A stretch of 40,642 nt of DNA. Source: Comamonadaceae bacterium. GTDB taxonomy: Bacteria; Pseudomonadota; Gammaproteobacteria; Burkholderiales; Burkholderiaceae_C. Positions 6,121-15,529 of this stretch are shown piece by piece. Numbering within the stretch: position 1 is the first letter of the stretch; every line of letters starts with the position of its first letter. A program made the position numbers and the translations under genes. The notes below the pieces were generated by a model, which saw only the letters and a list, made by a program, of their open reading frames with translations, ran no database searches and was not told the DNA's origin. The stretch lies in the NCBI GenBank assembly GCA_947378785.1, contig CANCLK010000024.1:1-40642 (forward strand), read 5' to 3'.

Positions 6121-6429
6121 ATGAAAAGCACAAGCCGTCGAGTATTCATGATGCAAGTCGCTGTCGGCACGACCGCAGTGATGGCATCGCAAGCCATGGC
6201 CCAAGCCAAGGTTGACGAAAAAGACCCACAAGCCGTGGCTTTGGGTTATTTGGCTGACACCACCAAGGTGGATGCTAAAAAGTTCCCAAAGCACGCAGCC
6301 GCTCAGAAGTGCTCGAATTGCCAGCTGTACACCGGCAAGGCCACTGACGCAAATGGTGGTTGCGCCCTGTTTGCCGGCAAACTGGTGGCTGGCAACGGCT
6401 GGTGCAGCGCCTACGTTAAAAAGGCCTGA
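6121..6429 (+). CDS. High-potential iron-sulfur protein (HiPIP)
   Basis: 102-residue precursor of a periplasmic HiPIP, a soluble 4Fe-4S electron carrier cycling between +2 and +3. A twin-arginine signal (TSRRVFMM) is cleaved near AMAQA. Four cluster cysteines are visible at C64, C67, C81 and C95 (CSNC, GGCALF, GWCSAY), with the aromatic Tyr70 typical of the cluster pocket. HiPIPs donate electrons to photosynthetic reaction centres or to terminal oxidases; no reaction-centre or oxidase gene is in the window. The stop codon abuts the stop of the convergent tspO within one TGATCA hexamer. The 215 bases upstream (5906-6120) are AT-rich near the gene and must hold its promoter, but I cannot assign boxes. 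Confidence 0.93.
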   Translation: MKSTSRRVFMMQVAVGTTAVMASQAMAQAKVDEKDPQAVALGYLADTTKVDAKKFPKHAAAQKCSNCQLYTGKATDANGGCALFAGKLVAGNGWCSAYVKKA

Positions 6430-6936
6430 TCAAAAAGGCGTGCTGAACGGCCCGTTGAGTTGCACTGTGGCGTAGTTGATCGCGATCGCGAAAGACACCC
6501 ACAACAGATAGGGTAACAAGAGGGCGCTGGATCGGCGTGAGTAGGCCTTCATCGACCATATCAAGGCGGCGATGGAGAGCCATAAAAATCCAACTTCAAG
6601 CAACGCCCAGTCGGGACGTTGTAGCTTGAAGAACAGCAAGCTCCAAAGCGTGTTCAAACTTGCATTCAGTGCAAAAAGACCGATCAGCCAATAGCGGCTG
6701 GCTCGGTCAGGCGTTTGCTTCCAAGCCGTGGCCCCTGCTGTGGCTGCCAACATAAAAATCAGTGTCCAAACTGGGCCAAACCAAGCGTCTGGTGGTTTGA
6801 AGGCGGGTTGCATCAAGCTTTTCTACCAGGGGCCTATCTCGGTCAGCAGACCACCCAATACTGCCACCCCCAGCGCTGCCAGCCCTGCAATCAAAAGGGG
6901 GCTCAGAGCGGTTGGATTTGGGACTTTTGGGGTCAT
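6430..6936 (-). pseudogene. tspO: TspO/MBR family protein interrupted by an in-frame TAG
   Basis: Reading from the ATG at 6936 gives 37 residues of a first TspO segment (SPLLIAGLAALGVAVLGGLLTEIGPW), then a TAG stop at 6823-6825. The same frame continues with KSLMQPAFKPPDAWFGPVWTLIFML and the remaining four membrane segments to 6430. In the family this spot reads W-Y-x-x-L-x-x-P-x-F/W-x-P-P, so the stop replaces the tyrosine codon: one base change from TAC or TAT. Total length (168 codons) matches TspO, an outer-membrane or cytoplasmic-membrane tetrapyrrole/cholesterol-binding translocator-like protein. The rest of the frame is intact, suggesting a recent lesion, a sequencing error or read-through. 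Re-initiation at TTG 6816 or ATG 6813 would give only helices 2-5. It starts 8 bases after the garD stop. Confidence 0.85.
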
Positions 6937-6944
6937 TGCGTTCT

Positions 6945-8531
6945 TCAGGTGATGGGTGCCGGGTTGAACAGCACCAGTGCGTTGTGCAGTTTCCAGTGTT
7001 CGGCCCAGGTTTTCTTGCGGCCGCTGGCGACTTCCAACATCATCTCAAAGAGTTCCCACCCGACGTTTTCAATGGTCTTTTCGCCGGTGGCGATGGTGCC
7101 TGCGTTGATGTCCATCAGGTCATGCCAGCGCCGGGCCAAGTCGCTGCGCGTGGCCACTTTGATGACCGGAACCGCCGCCAAACCGTAGGGTGTACCACGT
7201 CCTGTGGTGAAAACATGTAAATTCATCCCGCCGGCCAATTGCAGGGTTCCGCAGATGAAGTCGCTGGCGGGCGTGGCGGCGTAGGTCAGCCCCTTGGCTT
7301 TGAGTTTTTCGCCCGGGGACAACACATTAGCGATGGGCGCAGTACCCGACTTGACGATGGAGCCCATGGCTTTTTCGACGATGTTCGACAAGCCGCCTTT
7401 TTTGTTGCCGGGCGTCGTGTTGGCGCTGCGGTCTGCACCACCGCGCTGCAGGTAGGCGTCATACCAGGCCATCTCGCGGATCATCGCTTGCGCGACCTCA
7501 GGGGTTGTGGCGCGTGACGTCAGTTGGTCGATGCCATCGCGGACTTCTGTGGTTTCTGAAAACATCACACTGGCACCGGCACGGACCAACAAGTCGGTGC
7601 AATACCCCACTGCCGGGTTGGCCGTGACGCCGGAGAATGCATCGCTGCCGCCACACTGCACGCCGACCACCAGTTCAGACGCCGACACGGTTTCACGGCG
7701 ACGGGCGTTCAGACGTTGCAGATGTTGCTCGGCCTGACGCATGATGGAGTCGACCATTGACATGAAGCCCACATGCGCGTCGTCTTGCAAGCAGACCACG
7801 TCCAGCGGTGTTTCTGTGTTCAGGCTAGTTCCGCTGCGCACGTCGATCAACGGGATGCTGCCGGGTGGCAACAGGCGCTCCGGTTGGAGTTTTTCGCAGC
7901 CTAGGCTGACCACCATGACTTCGCCACCAAAGTTGGGGTTCAGGCTGATGTTGCGCAGGGTGCGAATCGGGATGATCGCGTCTGGCGCGTCAATCGCTAC
8001 GCCGCAGCCGTAGCCGTGCTCCAGCGCCACCACGTCGTCGACGTTGGGAAAGCGGGGCAGCAACTCGGACTTGATGCGTTGCACGGCAAAGTCGGTGACA
8101 CCGGCGACGCACTGCACGGTTTGGGTGATGGCCAGAATGTTGCGGGTACCGACTGATCCATCGGTGTTGCGAAAGCCTTCAAAGGTATAGCCCTCCAGCG
8201 GAGCCATCGTTGGCGGCTTGACTGTGGCGATGGGCAGGTTGTCGAGCCCGCATGCCGACGGCATCTCCAACAGCCGCTCGTGGACCCAGCTACCGGCCGG
8301 AATGTCTTTCAATGCGTAGCCGATGGGGATGCCGTAGCGCAGTACTGGCGCTGCGGCTTTCAGGTCGACCAGCGCGACCTTGTGGCCTTGGGGAACACGG
8401 TCTATCAACACCAGACCGTCAGGCAGTCTCGCCCCAAGTGGCAGGCCACCGTCATTGGCCACGATCGCCACGTTGTCGCGTTCGTGCATGCGGATGATGA
8501 TGGGATCGGTGCTTGGGGTTGAGGTTGGCAT
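6945..8531 (-). CDS. garD: Galactarate dehydratase
   Basis: 528-residue UxaA/GarD family dehydratase removing water from galactarate to give 5-dehydro-4-deoxy-D-glucarate. An N-terminal SAF-like domain ([51 protein letters not shown]) is followed by the catalytic part ([113 protein letters not shown]). Along its length it reads like E. coli GarD rather than the shorter altronate dehydratase, which lacks several of these blocks. Preceded by a strong promoter with an embedded palindrome (8573-8600) and followed directly by the broken tspO. It supplies the galactarate entry to the cluster; GudD supplies the glucarate entry. Confidence 0.92.
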
Positions 8532-8572
8532 GGCGTCTTTTCATGATGGCGGCGCAGTGGCGTGACCTTCAA

Positions 8573-8600
8573 ATTATCTGACAACTACAAAAGTTGTCAA
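8573..8600 (-). promoter_or_regulatory. garD promoter with embedded palindromic operator
   Basis: On the minus strand, a perfect -35 TTGACA (8600-8595), a 16-base spacer and -10 GATAAT (8578-8573, 5 of 6). The spacer is filled by a perfect inverted repeat TGACAACT-N5-AGTTGTCA (8579-8599) that shares five bases with the -35. This is the layout of a repressor-controlled promoter; the GntR protein encoded just upstream is the obvious candidate. A second TTGACAA lies further upstream (about 8606-8612). Confidence 0.7.
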
Positions 8601-8637
8601 GCAACTTTGTCAACGCCGTGAGCGCTTGACGCTAGGT

Positions 8638-9354
8638 TCAAGGCGCTGGTGTACTCTCAAAAATGCGTCGCTTGGCGTTCAGTACGTGCATGCGGATGGC
8701 GTCTGCGGCATCGGCAGGCGAGCGGCGAACGATGGCGTCAATGATCTCCTGATGCTCTGCTTGGGTGGTTCGCACCCGTTCAGCACTTTTTTTATCAGTG
8801 ACGTGGCGGGCCAGTTCAATGAACTGCCGAATCGGTGCGACGCTGGTCTCAATAGCGGTCACAAAAAACGGGTTGTGCGAGGCTTGTGCGATGGCCAAAT
8901 GAAACTGAACATCTTCGTCAGCGCCGGACTTGCCGTTCCCCATGGCGGTGTTCAACGCGTCGAATGCTGCCCGCAGCGCGTCCAGATCAGCAGAGTCGCG
9001 AAACTCCGCAGCGCCCGCCGCAGCGCCCATTTCGACGCAACTTCGGTAGGCGTAGTAACGCTCTATATCGGCCCAGCTCTTGATCGGTGTGGGTGGCGCG
9101 GCTGGTGTGCCGGGTGAGCGGATCACAAAGCTGCCAGAGCCGCGTTTGGACTCGATGATGCCGTCTGAGCGCAAGCGCGACAGGGCTTCTCGCACCGTGG
9201 GTCGGGACACGCTGAATTGGTTGGAGAGTTCGCCTTCGGTCGGTAGTTTGCCTCTGGGTGCGTAGTCGCCGCGCAGTATGGCCTCGACAACGCGAGCATA
9301 AATACGCTCCGGCAACGTGCCGGTACTGTCGTATTGAAGCAGGGGTTGGTTCAT
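8638..9354 (-). CDS. GntR family (FadR/FCD subfamily) regulator of the hexarate cluster
   Basis: 238 residues. The winged helix-turn-helix covers about residues 15-78 (KLPTEGELSNQFSVSRPTVREALSRLRSDGIIESKRGSGSFV). An all-helical FCD ligand domain runs from about 95 on, with likely metal-ligand residues in DEDVQFHLAIAQASHNPFF and later histidines in EHQEIIDAI and RMHVLNAKRRI. FCD regulators bind carboxylic acids, usually releasing DNA on binding. It sits between garD and the divergent kdgD-gudD set, so it most likely senses a hexarate or 5-dehydro-4-deoxyglucarate and controls both arms. Ligand and sign of regulation are inferred. Confidence 0.9.
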   Translation of the reverse strand: MNQPLLQYDSTGTLPERIYARVVEAILRGDYAPRGKLPTEGELSNQFSVSRPTVREALSRLRSDGIIESKRGSGSFVIRSPGTPAAPPTPIKSWADIERYYAYRSCVEMGAAAGAAEFRDSADLDALRAAFDALNTAMGNGKSGADEDVQFHLAIAQASHNPFFVTAIETSVAPIRQFIELARHVTDKKSAERVRTTQAEHQEIIDAIVRRSPADAADAIRMHVLNAKRRIFESTPAP

Positions 9355-9441
9355 GTGCAGCAGTGTCCTGTGAAACTGCTTTGTAGTTTAAGGCTGTAGC
9401 TTGACATCTTGGGTAGTTACCCGTGTTTGCTCAATATTTGC

Positions 9442-9469
9442 TTGACAGGGCCCGAGCCAAAGATAAGAT
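9442..9469 (+). promoter_or_regulatory. kdgD promoter candidate
   Basis: Perfect -35 TTGACA (9442-9447), 16-base spacer, -10 TAAGAT (9464-9469, 4 of 6), about 85 bases before the kdgD ATG. The spacing equals that of the garD promoter. A TTGTATGATGACTTG stretch just downstream (9474-9488), near the expected start point, may be a GntR site, but its symmetry is poor. Confidence 0.5.
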
Positions 9470-9552
9470 ATCGGTTGTATGATGACTTGAAATTAATCTC
9501 ATTTCTTTGTCACGCTCACGCAACTCACACCAAACACTGAAAGAAGCATTTC

Positions 9553-10464
9553 ATGAATCCGCAAGAACTCAAAACCATCATGTCCAGCGGTTTACTGTCG
9601 TTTCCTGTGACGGACTTTGATGCGCAGGGCGACTTCAACGCCAAAAGTTACGCGGCACGTCTGGAGTGGTTGGCGCCTTACGGTGCATCGGCCTTGTTCG
9701 CGGCCGGCGGCACGGGCGAATTTTTCTCCCTGACAGGACACGAATATCCAACGGTCATCAAAACTGCGGTGGAGACTTGCAAGGGCATCGTGCCTATCAT
9801 TGCTGGCGCAGGCGGCCCAACGCGTTTTGCCATTGAATGCGCGCAAGAAGCTGAGCGCCAAGGCGCACACGGCATTTTGTTGATGCCGCATTACCTGACC
9901 GAAGCGGGTCAAGAGGGCTTGATCGCCCATGTCGAGCAGGTCTGCAAAAGCGTCAAGTTCGGCGTGATTGTTTACAACCGCAATGTGTGCAAACTGACCC
10001 CTGCATCGCTGGCTATTTTGGCCGACCGTTGCCCGAACCTGATTGGCTTCAAAGACGGTGTTGGCGATATTGAAACCATGTCTTCGATCTACATGAAGAT
10101 GGGCGACCGCTTTGCCTACCTAGGCGGTTTGCCCACAGCGGAGGTTTACGCAGCTGCCTACAAAGCGCTCGGCACGCCCGTGTATTCTTCGGCAGTCTTC
10201 AACTTCATTCCAAAGACGGCGATGGATTTTTATCACGCCGTTGCGAAAGACGATTTGGCAACACAGCACCATTTGCTACGTGAGTTTTTCATGCCTTACT
10301 TGGATATCCGCAACAAGGTTGCAGGCTACGGCGTGAGCATCATCAAAGCCGGCGCCAAGCTCGTCGGACACGACGCTGGCCCGGTGCGCGCGCCGCTGAC
10401 GGACTTGAAGCCTGCAGAGATGGATGCCTTGGCGGCACTGATCAAAAAGCTCGGCCCACAGTGA
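9553..10464 (+). CDS. kdgD: 5-dehydro-4-deoxyglucarate dehydratase
   Basis: 303-residue DapA/NAL superfamily TIM barrel that dehydrates and decarboxylates 5-dehydro-4-deoxy-D-glucarate to 2,5-dioxopentanoate (2-oxoglutarate semialdehyde) and CO2. Visible motifs are the substrate-carboxylate loop [11 protein letters not shown] (about 50-60), the catalytic Tyr141 in VYNRN and the Schiff-base Lys167 in GFKDGVGD. The combination [11 protein letters not shown]...GGTGEFFSL...YNR is specific for this enzyme rather than dihydrodipicolinate synthase. It joins the products of GarD and GudD to the semialdehyde dehydrogenase at 14057. Its stop overlaps the gudD start by four bases (GTGA), so the two are translationally coupled. 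Confidence 0.95.
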
Positions 10465-11807
10465 GCGCGAACTTGTCTAAACACACCACGCCCGTCATCA
10501 CCGCTTTGCGCGTGATTCCAGTTGCAGGGCGCGACAGCATGTTGCTGAATTTGAGCGGGGCACATGGCCCGTTCTTCACCCGTAACCTGTTGATCCTGAC
10601 CGACAGCGATGGTCGCACGGGCGTGGGCGAAGTGCCCGGTGGCCAGAAGATCACGCAGACGCTTGAGGACGCCGCGCAACTCGTCGTCGGCCAAGCTATC
10701 GGCGCGCACCAGCGCATCTTGCAGCAGGTGCAGCAGCAGTTCGCAGACCGTGACAGCGGAGGGCGCGGCCAGCAGACCTTTGACCTGCGCACCACGATTC
10801 ACGCCGTCACCGCGATTGAATCAGCCTTGCTTGACCTGCTGGGGCAGCACTTGGGGGTGCCGGTGGCAGCCTTGCTGGGTGAAGGCCAGCAGCGCGAGTC
10901 AGTGGAAATGCTCGGCTATCTGTTTTATGTCGGTGACCGCAGTCAGACCGATCTGGATTACGTGAGCGACCCTAGCGCAGACAACGACTGGTTCCGCTTG
11001 CGCCACGAGAAAACCATGGACGCCAAGGCTGTGGTCCGGCAGGCAGAGGCGGCACGCGAACGCTATGGTTTCAACGACTTCAAACTCAAAGGCGGCGTGT
11101 TGCGCGGAGCCGAAGAAATTGAAGCCGTGTGCGCCTTGCACGAGCGCTTTCCAGACGCCCGTGTCACGCTAGACCCGAATGGCGGTTGGTTGCTGAAAGA
11201 CGCGATTACGCTGATGCGCGACCTGCGCGGTGTGGTGGCTTACGCCGAAGACCCTTGCGGCGCTGAAGACGGTTTTTCAGGTCGCGAGGTCATGGCCGAA
11301 TTCAGGCGGGCCACAGGCCTGCCGACTGCAACGAACATGATTGCCACCGACTGGCGGCAATTGACGCATGCACTGTCACTGCAATCGGTCGACATTCCGC
11401 TGGCTGACCCGCATTTTTGGACCATGGCCGGCTCGGTCCGCGTGGCGCAGACCTGCCGCGACTGGGGCCTGACTTGGGGCTCGCATTCGAACAATCACTT
11501 TGACGTCTCATTGGCCATGTTCACGCAGGTGGGCGCGGCTGCACCGGGTCGGGTGACGGCGATCGACACGCACTGGATCTGGCAAGACGGTCAGCGCCTG
11601 ACCAAAGAGCCCTTGCAAATCATCGGTGGTCACGTGCAAGTGCCTAAAAAGCCGGGGCTGGGTGTTGAGATCGACATGGTCGAGGTTGAAAAAGCCCACC
11701 GCTTGTACAAGCAACACGGCTTGGGTGCACGTGATGACGCCATGGCCATGCAAAGCCTGATTCCTGGCTGGACCTTCAATCCAAAACGACCCGCATTAGA
11801 CCGCTGA
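10461..11807 (+). CDS. gudD: Glucarate dehydratase
   Basis: 448-residue enolase-superfamily acid-sugar dehydratase converting D-glucarate (and L-idarate) to 5-dehydro-4-deoxy-D-glucarate. Catalytic pattern: K208-L-K210 in NDFKLKGG, metal ligands D238-P-N240 and E263 in YAEDP, N292 in ATNM, D316 in LADPHFW, and the base His342 in [10 protein letters not shown]. These keep the spacing of E. coli GudD with a shift of about three residues. The start is GTG overlapping the kdgD stop, which explains the lack of a separate ribosome site. With garD, the cell has separate dehydratases for both hexarates. Confidence 0.95.
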
Positions 11808-11819
11808 AAATTTAATCAA

Positions 11820-11836
11820 TTGACAAATACTTGTCC
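11820..11836. promoter_or_regulatory. TTGACAA dyad upstream of the lactonase gene
   Basis: GACAA-ATAC-TTGTC, an interrupted palindrome inside TTGACAAATACTTGTC, 13 bases after gudD and about 70 before the lactonase ATG. Its half-site (TTGACAA) equals that of the garD operator but the spacing is five bases shorter. Possible second site for the cluster's GntR regulator. A small GC-rich hairpin followed by ATTTTT (about 11855-11880) lies between it and the gene and may trim read-through from gudD. Confidence 0.35.
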
Positions 11837-11905
11837 GGGGCGGCCCGGTGTACCGTGCGGCCGGTTGCCGATTTTTAAATCACTAACGACATCGGAGACA
11901 AAGAC

Positions 11906-13024
11906 ATGACGAACAACAACATCAAACCCCGCCGCGACTTTCTTGTTGCCGCTGCCAGCACGGGCTTAGCCGCCCTGAGTGGTTCGGCGTTAGCACAATC
12001 ATTCGACTTCAAACCCAACCAGCGTTACCCCGACCCATCGGTGCTGATACTGGATCCGAGCTTTGGCAAATACCGCATTTACAGCAGCACCGTTGAACAA
12101 GTCGGAACCGGTATGCGCTGGGCTGAAGGTCCGGTGTATTTCCCCAATGAAAAAGCCGGTAAGCCTGGCTATTTGCTGGTGAGTGACATTCCAAACAATC
12201 GCCTGATGAAGTTTGACGAAGCCACCAACAAGTTCTCGGTGCACAAAGAAAATGTCAACTACGCCAACGGCAACACGCGCGACCGCCAAGGCCGTTTGAT
12301 CAGCTGCGAACACTCGGTGACACGCCGCGTTGTACGCACCGAGAAAAACGGCAAGATGACGGTGCTGGCAGACAACTACGAAGGGAAAAAACTCAATGCA
12401 CCGAACGATATCGTGGTCAAGTCTGATGACACGATTTGGTTCACTGATCCCATCTTCGGTATCAATGGAGAGTGGGAAGGTTCGCGCGCCAAGCCAGAGC
12501 AAGCCACCACCAATGTCTACCGGATCGCCAAAGATGGCAAGCTCACCGCGGTCATCACTGACCTCGTTAACCCGAACGGTTTGGCTTTTTCGCCGGACGA
12601 GAAAAAACTCTATGTCGTGGAGTGGAAGGGCACACCTAACCGCAGCATCTGGAGCTACGACGTGGCCGCCGATGGCACTTGCTCAAACAAGACCAAATTG
12701 ATTGACGCTAACGGCCCAGGAGCTTTTGACGGTTTTCGTGTTGACCGCGATGGCAACCTCTGGTGCGGCTGGGGCTTCAGCGGCGCATTCGCGCCCGAAG
12801 CCACTGACGTTGCTGGCGGCATGAAGGCTCACTTGCCCGTGGCCAAGTCGGAAGACATGGACGGCGTCAAAATTTTCAACTCAGCCGGCAAGCCGATCGG
12901 ATTTATTCGCCTGCCAGAACGCTGCGCCAACCTTGAATTCGGTGGACCTAAACGCAACCGCCTCTACATGACCAGCTCGCATTCTCTCTACGCGCTGTAT
13001 GTCGAAACGCATGCTGCGGTGTAA
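11906..13024 (+). CDS. SMP-30/gluconolactonase family protein, Tat-exported
   Basis: 372 residues. A twin-arginine signal (PRRDFLVAAASTGLAALSGSALAQ) directs export to the periplasm. The rest is a six-bladed SMP-30/LRE propeller: GMRWAEGPVYFP (metal-ligand Glu of blade 1), LVSDIPNNRLMKFD, NGNTRDRQGRLISCEH, LNAPNDIVVKSDDTIWFTDPIFG (metal-ligand Asn), LVNPNGLAFSPDEKKLYVVEW, and DGFRVDRDGNLWCGWG (metal-ligand Asp). In this cluster it most likely opens glucaro- or galactaro-lactones, or an aldonolactone, in the periplasm before uptake by the neighbouring binding protein. The lactone specificity is inferred from neighbours. A GGAGA ribosome site precedes the ATG. Confidence 0.9.
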   Translation: MTNNNIKPRRDFLVAAASTGLAALSGSALAQSFDFKPNQRYPDPSVLILDPSFGKYRIYSSTVEQVGTGMRWAEGPVYFPNEKAGKPGYLLVSDIPNNRLMKFDEATNKFSVHKENVNYANGNTRDRQGRLISCEHSVTRRVVRTEKNGKMTVLADNYEGKKLNAPNDIVVKSDDTIWFTDPIFGINGEWEGSRAKPEQATTNVYRIAKDGKLTAVITDLVNPNGLAFSPDEKKLYVVEWKGTPNRSIWSYDVAADGTCSNKTKLIDANGPGAFDGFRVDRDGNLWCGWGFSGAFAPEATDVAGGMKAHLPVAKSEDMDGVKIFNSAGKPIGFIRLPERCANLEFGGPKRNRLYMTSSHSLYALYVETHAAV

Positions 13025-13052
13025 TTTTTAAATTTTTTCAGCCGGAGATTTC

Positions 13053-14036
13053 ATGTCTACAAGACGATTCACCTTGGCCACCCTGGCCTGTGCAACCATC
13101 GGTTTTTTGGCTAGCGGCAGCGCCGTCTTGGCTCAGTCGGACTACCCCACCAAACCGGTGAAAATTATTGTGCCGTTCCCACCGGGTGGCACCAGTGATG
13201 TGATGGGGCGCATGGTGGCTGATGAACTCAGCAAGATACTCAAGCAGCCCTTTATCGTTGAGAACATCGCTGGTGCAGGCGGTATCGTTGGGACAGACCG
13301 AGCGACCAAGATGACCCCGGATGGTTACACCTTGATCCAGACCGGTGTTGGTCAAAGTGCCGTGGCGCATGGTCTGGATCCGAACCTCAAGTACAACTCG
13401 ATGACGGATTTCATCCACATCTCGCAAGTGAACTCCGGCCCCAATGTGCTGGTGGTCAACCCAGCCACACCTTACAAGACAGTCAAAGACATCGTCGACT
13501 ACGCCAAAGCCAACCCAGGCAAGCTGGATTACGGCTTCACCCACGCGGCCTCTGGTCACATGGCGATGGAGTTGTTCAAGCAAACCACCGGCATTCAATT
13601 GACAGGTATTTCGTACCGGGGCGGTGGTCCGATGTTGACCGATTTGTTGGGCGGCACGATTCCGATGATGTTCATCAACCAAGACGCGGCCTTGCCACAC
13701 GTCCGGGCTGGCAAGATGAGGGCGATTGCCGTTTCCAGCGCGCAGCGAAATCCGCTGTACCCCGATGTGCCGACGATTGCCGAGTCGGGTTACAAAGGCT
13801 TTGAAGCGCTGTCTTGGTCGGGCATTTCAGCCATCAAAGGAACCCCGCAACCGATTGTTGATAAGCTCGAAGCGGCTATCGCACAGGCGATGAAGTCTGA
13901 CGCTATCAAACAGCGTATGGGCTCGGTCGGTTTCGTTATTCCGGAACAGGGATCGAAACCCTATACCGCCTTCGTGAAGAAGGAAATTGACACTTGGACG
14001 CGCGTCATCAAAACCGCTGGCATCAAGCCTGAATAA
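13053..14036 (+). CDS. Bug/TctC-type substrate-binding protein of the hexarate cluster
   Basis: 327-residue periplasmic binding protein with a signal peptide ending SGSAVLAQS, then SDYPTKPVKIIVPFPPGGTSDVMGRMVADELSK, GAGGIVGTDRATKMTPDGYTL, GISYRGGGPMLTDLLGGTIPMMF and YPDVPTIAESGYKGFEALSW. All are Bug hallmarks, including the aspartate of PDGYTL that contacts bound carboxylates through water. Located between the lactonase and the semialdehyde dehydrogenase (28 and 20 base gaps), it most likely binds glucarate or galactarate. The TctA/TctB membrane proteins are not in the window and must be supplied from elsewhere. Confidence 0.93.
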   Translation: MSTRRFTLATLACATIGFLASGSAVLAQSDYPTKPVKIIVPFPPGGTSDVMGRMVADELSKILKQPFIVENIAGAGGIVGTDRATKMTPDGYTLIQTGVGQSAVAHGLDPNLKYNSMTDFIHISQVNSGPNVLVVNPATPYKTVKDIVDYAKANPGKLDYGFTHAASGHMAMELFKQTTGIQLTGISYRGGGPMLTDLLGGTIPMMFINQDAALPHVRAGKMRAIAVSSAQRNPLYPDVPTIAESGYKGFEALSWSGISAIKGTPQPIVDKLEAAIAQAMKSDAIKQRMGSVGFVIPEQGSKPYTAFVKKEIDTWTRVIKTAGIKPE

Positions 14037-14056
14037 CTTAACTGGACACACGCTGC

Positions 14057-15529
14057 ATGAAAACTCTCCAATCTATCCAAGCCCGCACGGGCGAAGCGCT
14101 CGGTGCGCCCTTACTGGCGACCACCTCCGCCCAAGTAGACGCAGCCGCCAACGCTGCGGCTCAAGCCTTTGAGGTCTGGGCTACCAGCACAGGCGAGGCG
14201 CGTGGCAACTTGTTGCGCGGGCTGGCCAGCGCACTTGAAGCCGACCGTGAGGGGTTGGTGAGCTTGGCTGATGTGGAAACCGGGTTGGGTCCGGTGCGGC
14301 TGAATGGTGAGTTGGACCGCACCGCATTTCAGCTGCGTCGCTTTGCCGACATCGCTGAGAAAGGCCTTGCCTTTGAGCGCTTGGACGACCCGGCTGTGGC
14401 CGGTCCGCCGCCTGCAGGGCATCCGGCGATGGTGCGTCAGCGCGTGCCGCTTGGCCCTGTGGCGATGTTTTCTGCGAGCAATTTTCCGTTCGCCTTTTCT
14501 GTCTTGGGTGGCGACACCGCTTCAGCCTTGGCGGCTGGTTGCCCAGTGGTGATCAAGGCCCATTCCGGCCATTTGCTGTTGTCCAACCGCGTCTTCGGTT
14601 TGGTGCAAAAGGTGCTGAGTGCTCAGAAGTTGCCGGCCGGTCTGATGGGTTTTATTCAGGGCGGTGGCTCGGACGTCGGTGTGCGTTTGGTACAGCACCC
14701 CGCCATGGCTGCCGGTGCTTTCACGGGCTCGACGCGGGGTGGCGCGGCGCTGCAGGCGGTGGCCAACGCACGGCCACGGCCGATTCCGTTTTATGGAGAA
14801 CTCGGGTCTATCAACCCAGTGGTGGCGATGCCGTCACTGTTGGCCGAAAAAGGTGCTGAGTTGGCTGCTTTGTTGGCCGGTTCGATCAGCCTGGGGTGCG
14901 GTCAGTTTTGCACCAGCCCGGGCGTGATCGTCTTGATCAAGGACGCGGCCTCCGATGCTTTCGTATCCCAACTGGTCACCGCATTGGCCGCCCAAAATCC
15001 GCATGCCATGTTGACGCCGGGCATGCGCCAGGCCTTTGACTCGGGTGTGGCTCACATGCTGTCTGCGGGTGCCAAGCCTTTGCTGCACGAAGCGGGAAAA
15101 GCGGAGGCACCACGGCCGTTTTTGGCTGAGGTGGATGCGCCTAACTTCATCGCCAAGGCTGAGTTGCGGGAAGAGTTGTTTGGCCCGGCCAGCCTGATCG
15201 TGCGTGCCGCTTCTGTGCGCGAGGCGCTGGAGGTGTTGAATGCCGTGGGCGGGAGCCTGACGGTGACGTTGTGGGGCGTTGATGCGCCAACTGAAGATAA
15301 CCAGGCCTTGGTACGTGCAGCGATGGCGATAGCCGGTCGGGTTCTGTTTGCGGGGGTTCCCACTGGTGTCGCTGTGACAGCAGCGCAGCAGCACGGTGGC
15401 CCGTGGCCGTCGTCCACACAGCCTATGACGACCTCCGTCGGCGATGCGGCGATGGAGCGCTTCTTGCGCCCGGTGGCTTTGCAAGATGCCCCCGCATGGC
15501 TGTTGGCCCGCAACGGCCGACCTTGTTGA
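14057..15529 (+). CDS. 2-oxoglutarate semialdehyde dehydrogenase (NADP+)
   Basis: 490-residue aldehyde dehydrogenase. The nucleotide-binding part shows FSASNFPFAFSVLGGDTASALAAGCPVVIKAH, the general base is Glu248 in FYGELGSINPV and the nucleophile is Cys285 in GCGQFCTSPG. FSASNFPF and the FYGELGSINPV block are typical of alpha-ketoglutaric semialdehyde dehydrogenases acting after KdgD-type dehydratases. It would oxidise 2,5-dioxopentanoate to 2-oxoglutarate, finishing the pathway into the TCA cycle. Last gene of the plus-strand run, 20 bases after the Bug gene; it converges on pldA with four bases between, with no terminator visible. Confidence 0.92.
   Translation: MKTLQSIQARTGEALGAPLLATTSAQVDAAANAAAQAFEVWATSTGEARGNLLRGLASALEADREGLVSLADVETGLGPVRLNGELDRTAFQLRRFADIAEKGLAFERLDDPAVAGPPPAGHPAMVRQRVPLGPVAMFSASNFPFAFSVLGGDTASALAAGCPVVIKAHSGHLLLSNRVFGLVQKVLSAQKLPAGLMGFIQGGGSDVGVRLVQHPAMAAGAFTGSTRGGAALQAVANARPRPIPFYGELGSINPVVAMPSLLAEKGAELAALLAGSISLGCGQFCTSPGVIVLIKDAASDAFVSQLVTALAAQNPHAMLTPGMRQAFDSGVAHMLSAGAKPLLHEAGKAEAPRPFLAEVDAPNFIAKAELREELFGPASLIVRAASVREALEVLNAVGGSLTVTLWGVDAPTEDNQALVRAAMAIAGRVLFAGVPTGVAVTAAQQHGGPWPSSTQPMTTSVGDAAMERFLRPVALQDAPAWLLARNGRPC

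What the first reader, a model, noticed from the sequence alone, without database searches (positions are those of the whole stretch)
6430..6936. tspO interrupted by a single in-frame amber codon at an almost invariant tyrosine
Seen directly: from ATG 6936 the minus-strand frame reads a normal TspO first helix ending EIGPW, then TAG (6825-6823), then KSLMQPAFKPPDAW and an otherwise intact TspO to 6430. The family has W-Y at this point, so one base (TAC or TAT to TAG) explains it. No other stop or frameshift is present. Options: recent pseudogene, sequencing error, strain-specific null, amber read-through, or re-initiation making a four-helix protein lacking helix 1.
Basis: partly seen in the sequence, partly recalled or inferred. 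Interest (0 to 1): 0.7.

Follow-up and report, generated by a model that had tools for sequence, protein, structure and literature searches.

The report
Recent stop codon in tspO
One draft bacterial genome has a stop codon early in an otherwise intact and conserved membrane-protein gene (tspO), while the same protein without the stop is listed on 16 public contigs, so this is likely a very recent gene knock-out, or possibly an assembly error, and not a new mechanism.

Summary
A minus-strand TspO/MBR gene (6936-6430) carries one in-frame TAG at 6825-6823, where 83 of 84 other loci have tyrosine and one has phenylalanine. The stop looks very recent and private to this assembly. A database protein (P0001), identical at the other 167 of 167 residues, has the tyrosine and is listed on 16 contigs. 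Helix 1, upstream of the stop, is strongly conserved against the three nearest orthologues (14-17 synonymous to 1 nonsynonymous difference), and the downstream part is as constrained as in intact pairs. None of 48 other TspO matches in the genus has a TAG. None of 37 tRNAs has a CTA anticodon, although tRNA-Tyr was not recovered. No stop lies inside 234 other domain matches in this genome. The gene looks dispensable: 38 of 87 congeners show no match, and two hold only pieces. A recent null allele is most likely. A consensus error is a close second that only reads can separate. Read-through is unlikely. Re-initiation at ATG 6813 remains possible, but that methionine is also in the intact protein. 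Ordinary.

The parts
6430..6936 (-). tspO frame (TspO/MBR family), 168 codons plus TGA, one internal TAG
6826..6936 (-). 5' piece, 37 codons: N-terminus and helix 1, ending EIGPW
   Evidence: hydropathy
6823..6825 (-). in-frame TAG where 83 of 84 other loci have Tyr and 1 has Phe
6433..6822 (-). 3' piece, 130 codons: helices 2-5
   Evidence: Pfam PF03073, 110.3 bits; hydropathy
6811..6813 (-). in-frame ATG 9 bases after the TAG: possible re-initiation start (127 codons, no helix 1); untested
   Evidence: the Met is also in intact P0001
6121..6429 (+). HiPIP gene, convergent with tspO, stop codons abutting; a HiPIP hit lies beside tspO in all 10 closest orthologous genomes
6945..8531 (-). galactarate/altronate dehydratase-type gene just upstream of tspO on the same strand
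   Evidence: synteny

Best explanation
A single in-frame TAG interrupts an otherwise intact and conserved five-helix tspO gene, and it is likely a very recent nonsense allele that would end translation after helix 1 and leave this strain without working TspO. Shown: the stop, the otherwise identical intact protein in public data, constraint on both sides of the stop, and a patchy presence of tspO in the genus. Inferred: that the base is real in the organism, that the 37-residue product has no function, and that no useful second product is made.
For: P0001 (168 aa, Tyr at the site) is identical to the window frame at the other 167 of 167 residues and is listed on 16 contigs, the longest 26,883 bases, shorter than the window's own 40,642. 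Helix 1 against the three nearest orthologues (L010, L013, L015): 17, 14 and 14 synonymous versus 1 nonsynonymous difference each over 25 codons; against five more distant ones 13.5-14.5 versus 3.5-7.3. Downstream dN/dS is 0.087-0.152 against eight orthologues, matching 0.077-0.153 among 15 intact pairs. None of 48 other matches in the genus (44 strong, 4 weak at 24-29 bits) has a TAG. No match in 38 of 87 congeners, including 21 of 49 that are at least 90% complete and at most 5% contaminated. G047 and G016 gave only pieces of a tspO. No other TspO match lies in this genome.
Against: The genome is a draft of 117 contigs, 85.25% complete and 6.48% contaminated. No reads are available, and the otherwise identical intact protein on 16 contigs fits a consensus error equally well. 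P0001 is listed with blank sources, which the tool reserves for proteins of the window itself, so some of those contigs may come from the same organism or sample. No second sequence with the TAG was found. An in-frame ATG 9 bases downstream leaves a re-initiated four-helix product possible.
Confidence: 0.5

Rival explanations
1. Consensus error, or mixing of strains, in this draft assembly: the organism's tspO is plainly intact.
For: Fragmented draft with 6.48% contamination. An otherwise identical intact protein is listed on 16 contigs. No match in a congener has the TAG. No sign of decay elsewhere in the gene.
Against: No stop inside 234 domain matches of this genome, so the assembly is not visibly error-ridden. 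This bound is weak, because only a small share of random substitutions make stops.
Confidence: 0.36
2. Termination-re-initiation: ribosomes stop at TAG and would restart at ATG 6813 (or TTG 6816), giving a four-helix TspO without helix 1.
For: The ATG lies 9 bases after the TAG. The genus has a second TspO type without a hydrophobic segment before the Tyr in 10 of 10 loci examined. Predicted anti-Shine-Dalgarno pairing at ATG 6813 (-2.9 kcal/mol) lies in the middle of 24 other window starts (-8.9 to +1.3) and is stronger than at the annotated start (-1.0).
Against: The Met is already in the intact P0001. Helix 1 was under strong constraint. The product would lack the W-Y that the helix-1-less type keeps. 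-2.9 is also no better than random 20-mers (median -3.0). No 127- or 128-residue form appears among the 120 best of 4085 hits, although clustering could hide one.
Confidence: 0.1
3. Amber read-through: TAG is decoded as an amino acid and full-length TspO is made.
For: The downstream frame is intact and conserved.
Against: 37 tRNAs, none with a CTA anticodon. TAG is the terminal stop in 3 of 39 window frames. No TAG inside 84 ABC_tran and 150 TctC matches. All 10 closest orthologous genomes have Tyr here. Caveat: tRNA-Tyr itself was not recovered in this incomplete assembly.
Confidence: 0.03

Closest known systems
Bacterial TspO/MBR (PF03073), e.g. Rhodobacter sphaeroides TspO (PDB 4uc1)
   Same: Five hydrophobic segments, the WY motif and a near full-length profile match. 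The site corresponds to chain position 31 of 4uc1 by the alignment.
   Different: One in-frame TAG at the Tyr. No reaction-centre gene (PF00124) was found in this genome, so the photosynthesis-regulation role reported for Rhodobacter (titles in the reference list of PMC8243069) need not apply.
Helix-1-lacking TspO type of the same genus (L021-L030)
   Same: Would resemble the re-initiated product of the window gene in lacking helix 1.
   Different: Its last ATG lies 9-11 codons before the conserved Tyr and it keeps W-Y. It is 29-33% identical to the window over the downstream part.
Ordinary nonsense alleles / young pseudogenes
   Same: Single stop, no other decay, otherwise identical intact protein elsewhere.
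   Different: Nothing distinctive.

Membership tests
TspO/MBR (PF03073) | Profile match over the curated cut-off | tested here: met
   121.9 bits against a cut-off of 24, positions 4-143 of 145, stop read through by the tool; 110.3 bits for the 3' piece alone
TspO/MBR (PF03073) | Five transmembrane helices in one open frame | tested here: not met
   Five hydrophobic segments, but the TAG separates helix 1 from helices 2-5
TspO/MBR (PF03073) | Porphyrin/ligand binding and photo-oxidative activity | not testable with these tools
   needs protein
Recent pseudogene / null allele | Disabling lesion absent from close relatives | tested here: met
   0 of 48 other matches in the genus with TAG; otherwise identical intact protein
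Recent pseudogene / null allele | Lesion present in reads or independent assemblies | not tested
Amber read-through gene | Suppressor tRNA, or TAG reassigned | tested here: not met
   No CTA anticodon in the 37 tRNAs found, assembly 85% complete; TAG ends 3 of 39 window frames
Re-initiated split gene | Stop shared by relatives, with relaxed constraint upstream of it | tested here: not met
   Upstream helix strongly constrained; stop in none of 48 other matches in the genus. The restart itself was not tested.

The most novel reading that the evidence does not exclude
The stop is a real allele that turns a five-helix TspO into a four-helix one by re-initiation at ATG 6813. It would reproduce in one step the helix-1-less TspO type that exists as a separate type in the same genus, and so show how that type could arise.
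Probability: 0.05. Interest if true: 0.5.

Novelty: new member of a known kind. Interest (0 to 1): 0.12.

Why it matters
It matters little. It shows that a stop in one draft assembly should be checked against otherwise identical proteins elsewhere before read-through or recoding is invoked. If the allele is real, it is one more tspO loss in a genus where the gene is already patchy, and a natural null for asking what TspO does in bacteria without a photosynthetic reaction centre.

Tried and rejected
Amber suppression or recoding: rejected on tRNAs, TAG usage and absence of internal stops elsewhere. A second TspO gene covering for this one: none found in the genome. Photosynthesis link: no PF00124 match in this genome. 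Compensatory new start codon: not supported, because the Met is also in the intact protein. The fact that 38 other window frames have no internal stop is no control, because they were taken from an ORF list; I do not count it as evidence. NCBIfam gives only a sub-threshold match to a TspO equivalog (92.3 against a cut-off of 180 bits), so no finer family name.

Literature: searches (9 papers, 8 listed; 77 papers, 10 listed) were seen as listings. I saw only found passages of PMC8243069 (Tyr32, Y32, Tyr34 and Y34 occur 0 times in its main text) and of PMC4237140 (the word tyrosine once, about another matter). One search (TspO with Tyr32) listed 3 papers that I did not open. One search (stop codons in metagenome-assembled genomes) found none.

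Full report
What is there. The minus-strand frame from ATG 6936 to TGA 6430 encodes a TspO/MBR protein with one in-frame TAG at 6825-6823. The 3' piece alone matches PF03073 at 110.3 bits. The whole frame, read through by the search tool, matches at 121.9 bits over profile positions 4-143 of 145. It is the only TspO match in this genome, a draft of 3,138,314 bases in 117 contigs, 85.25% complete and 6.48% contaminated. The nine closest loci are labelled Comamonadaceae (5), Polaromonas (2), Burkholderiales (1) and Rhodoferax (1), all as MAGs, so a Polaromonas/Rhodoferax-like Comamonadaceae is an inference.

The site. I aligned all 84 other loci held (29; 55) at this codon. Tyr occurs in 83 and Phe in 1; no stop occurs. 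Seven genomes occur twice, giving 77 distinct sequences (76 Tyr, 1 Phe). Fifteen further matches had no locus and were not aligned. In R. sphaeroides TspO (PDB 4uc1) the residue is chain position 31 by the ungapped start of the alignment.

Age of the stop. The protein search with the 127-residue downstream piece lists P0001 first: 168 residues, 100% identical over the query, 6 member sequences, 16 contigs, longest 26,883 bases. Its sequence has Tyr at the stop and matches the window frame at all 167 other residues. I read '16 contigs' as contigs of the representative, because other rows show many members on one contig (for example 144 members on 1 contig). The window is 40,642 bases, so its contig is not among them. 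The sources and name of P0001 are blank, which the tool reserves for proteins of the window itself, although the window has a stop there; so I cannot say whether any of the 16 come from the same sample. No 127- or 128-residue form appears among the 120 listed of 4085 hits, but clustering could hide one.

Constraint. Over 25 codons before the stop (the script's label says 18, which is wrong), the window differs from L010, L013 and L015 by 17, 14 and 14 synonymous and 1, 1 and 1 nonsynonymous changes; from five more distant orthologues by 13.5-14.5 synonymous and 3.5-7.3 nonsynonymous. Synonymous sites are near saturation there. Downstream dN/dS is 0.087-0.152 against eight orthologues, and 0.077-0.153 for 15 pairs of intact orthologues. 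Both sides of the stop were therefore maintained as one protein until recently, which speaks against an old split gene in this lineage.

Relatives. In the genus, 49 of 87 genomes have a TspO match. Of the 48 other than the window's (44 strong, 4 weak at 24-29 bits), none has a TAG and one (G047) has a TGA. For G047 and G016, BLAST found only pieces of the second TspO type. 38 of 87 have no match, including 21 of 49 genomes at least 90% complete and at most 5% contaminated. Loss or absence of tspO is thus common, which makes a null allele plausible.

Decoding. 37 tRNA genes were found and all were typed by ARAGORN (30, 7); none has anticodon CTA. tRNA-Tyr, tRNA-Trp and tRNA-Ile (GAT) were not among them, so a suppressor in the missing part is not strictly excluded. 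39 gene frames chosen by eye end in TGA 24, TAA 12 and TAG 3 times. No stop lies inside 84 ABC_tran and 150 TctC matches (150 scored of 176 candidates). The stop is exceptional in this sample of the genome.

Re-initiation. An ATG lies 9 bases after the TAG. Its predicted pairing with the anti-Shine-Dalgarno sequence (-2.9 kcal/mol) is in the middle of 24 other window starts (-8.9 to +1.3), about the median of random 20-mers (-3.0), and stronger than at the annotated start (-1.0), so this test says little. The Met is in P0001 as well, so it need not be a response to the stop. The genus does have a TspO type whose last ATG is 9-11 codons before the Tyr and that shows no hydrophobic segment before it (10 of 10 loci; best 19-residue hydropathy 1.05 or less, against 2.34 in the window). 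The hydropathy rule found four segments in 6 of the 10, five in 3 and three in 1. That is a precedent for a helix-1-less TspO, but those proteins keep W-Y, which the restarted product would lack.

Verdict. This is a very recent, apparently private stop in a maintained but dispensable gene. I put 0.50 on a real null allele, 0.36 on a consensus error, 0.10 on a restarted product and 0.03 on read-through. Reads decide between the first two.

Noticed in passing
L021-L030 (congeners of the window's genome): A second TspO type, 134-138 aa from its last ATG, has no hydrophobic segment before the conserved W-Y in 10 of 10 loci examined. By profile coverage it may be the commoner type: 31 of 45 strong matches in the genus start at profile position 9-18, against 14 at 2-4.
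   Followed up: partly
genomes: Each listed genome with a TspO match has exactly one; the five-helix and the helix-1-less type were not seen together in one genome.
   Followed up: no
congeners G001-G060: Reaction-centre genes (PF00124) and TspO tend to exclude each other: TspO match in 3 of 14 congeners with PF00124 (one of them weak) against 32 of 46 without (Fisher p = 0.002; kinship and incomplete genomes not controlled).
   Followed up: partly
window 6121-6432; L008, L010-L015, L018, L035, L036: A HiPIP gene lies convergent with five-helix tspO in the window (stop codons abutting), and a HiPIP hit lies beside tspO in all 10 closest orthologous genomes, including three where the galactarate gene was not hit. 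In the more distant L020 a HiPIP hit lies on the same strand instead.
   Followed up: partly
L125 (G047), L126 (G016): Only pieces of the second TspO type were found; one search reports one TGA in the G047 match, which the BLAST piece does not include. Possible independent decay of tspO.
   Followed up: partly
G000: 150 TctC (Bug-type) solute-binding matches in a 3.1-Mb draft genome; 176 candidates, 150 scored, so the true number may be higher.
   Followed up: no
window 6945-15529: Genes that look like a sugar-acid (glucarate/galactarate) catabolism cluster: dehydratase, GntR regulator, dihydrodipicolinate-synthase-like, enolase-like, SMP-30-like, Bug receptor, aldehyde dehydrogenase. Only the first (Pfam) and the Bug receptor (TctC) were tested; the rest are named from recall.
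   Followed up: no
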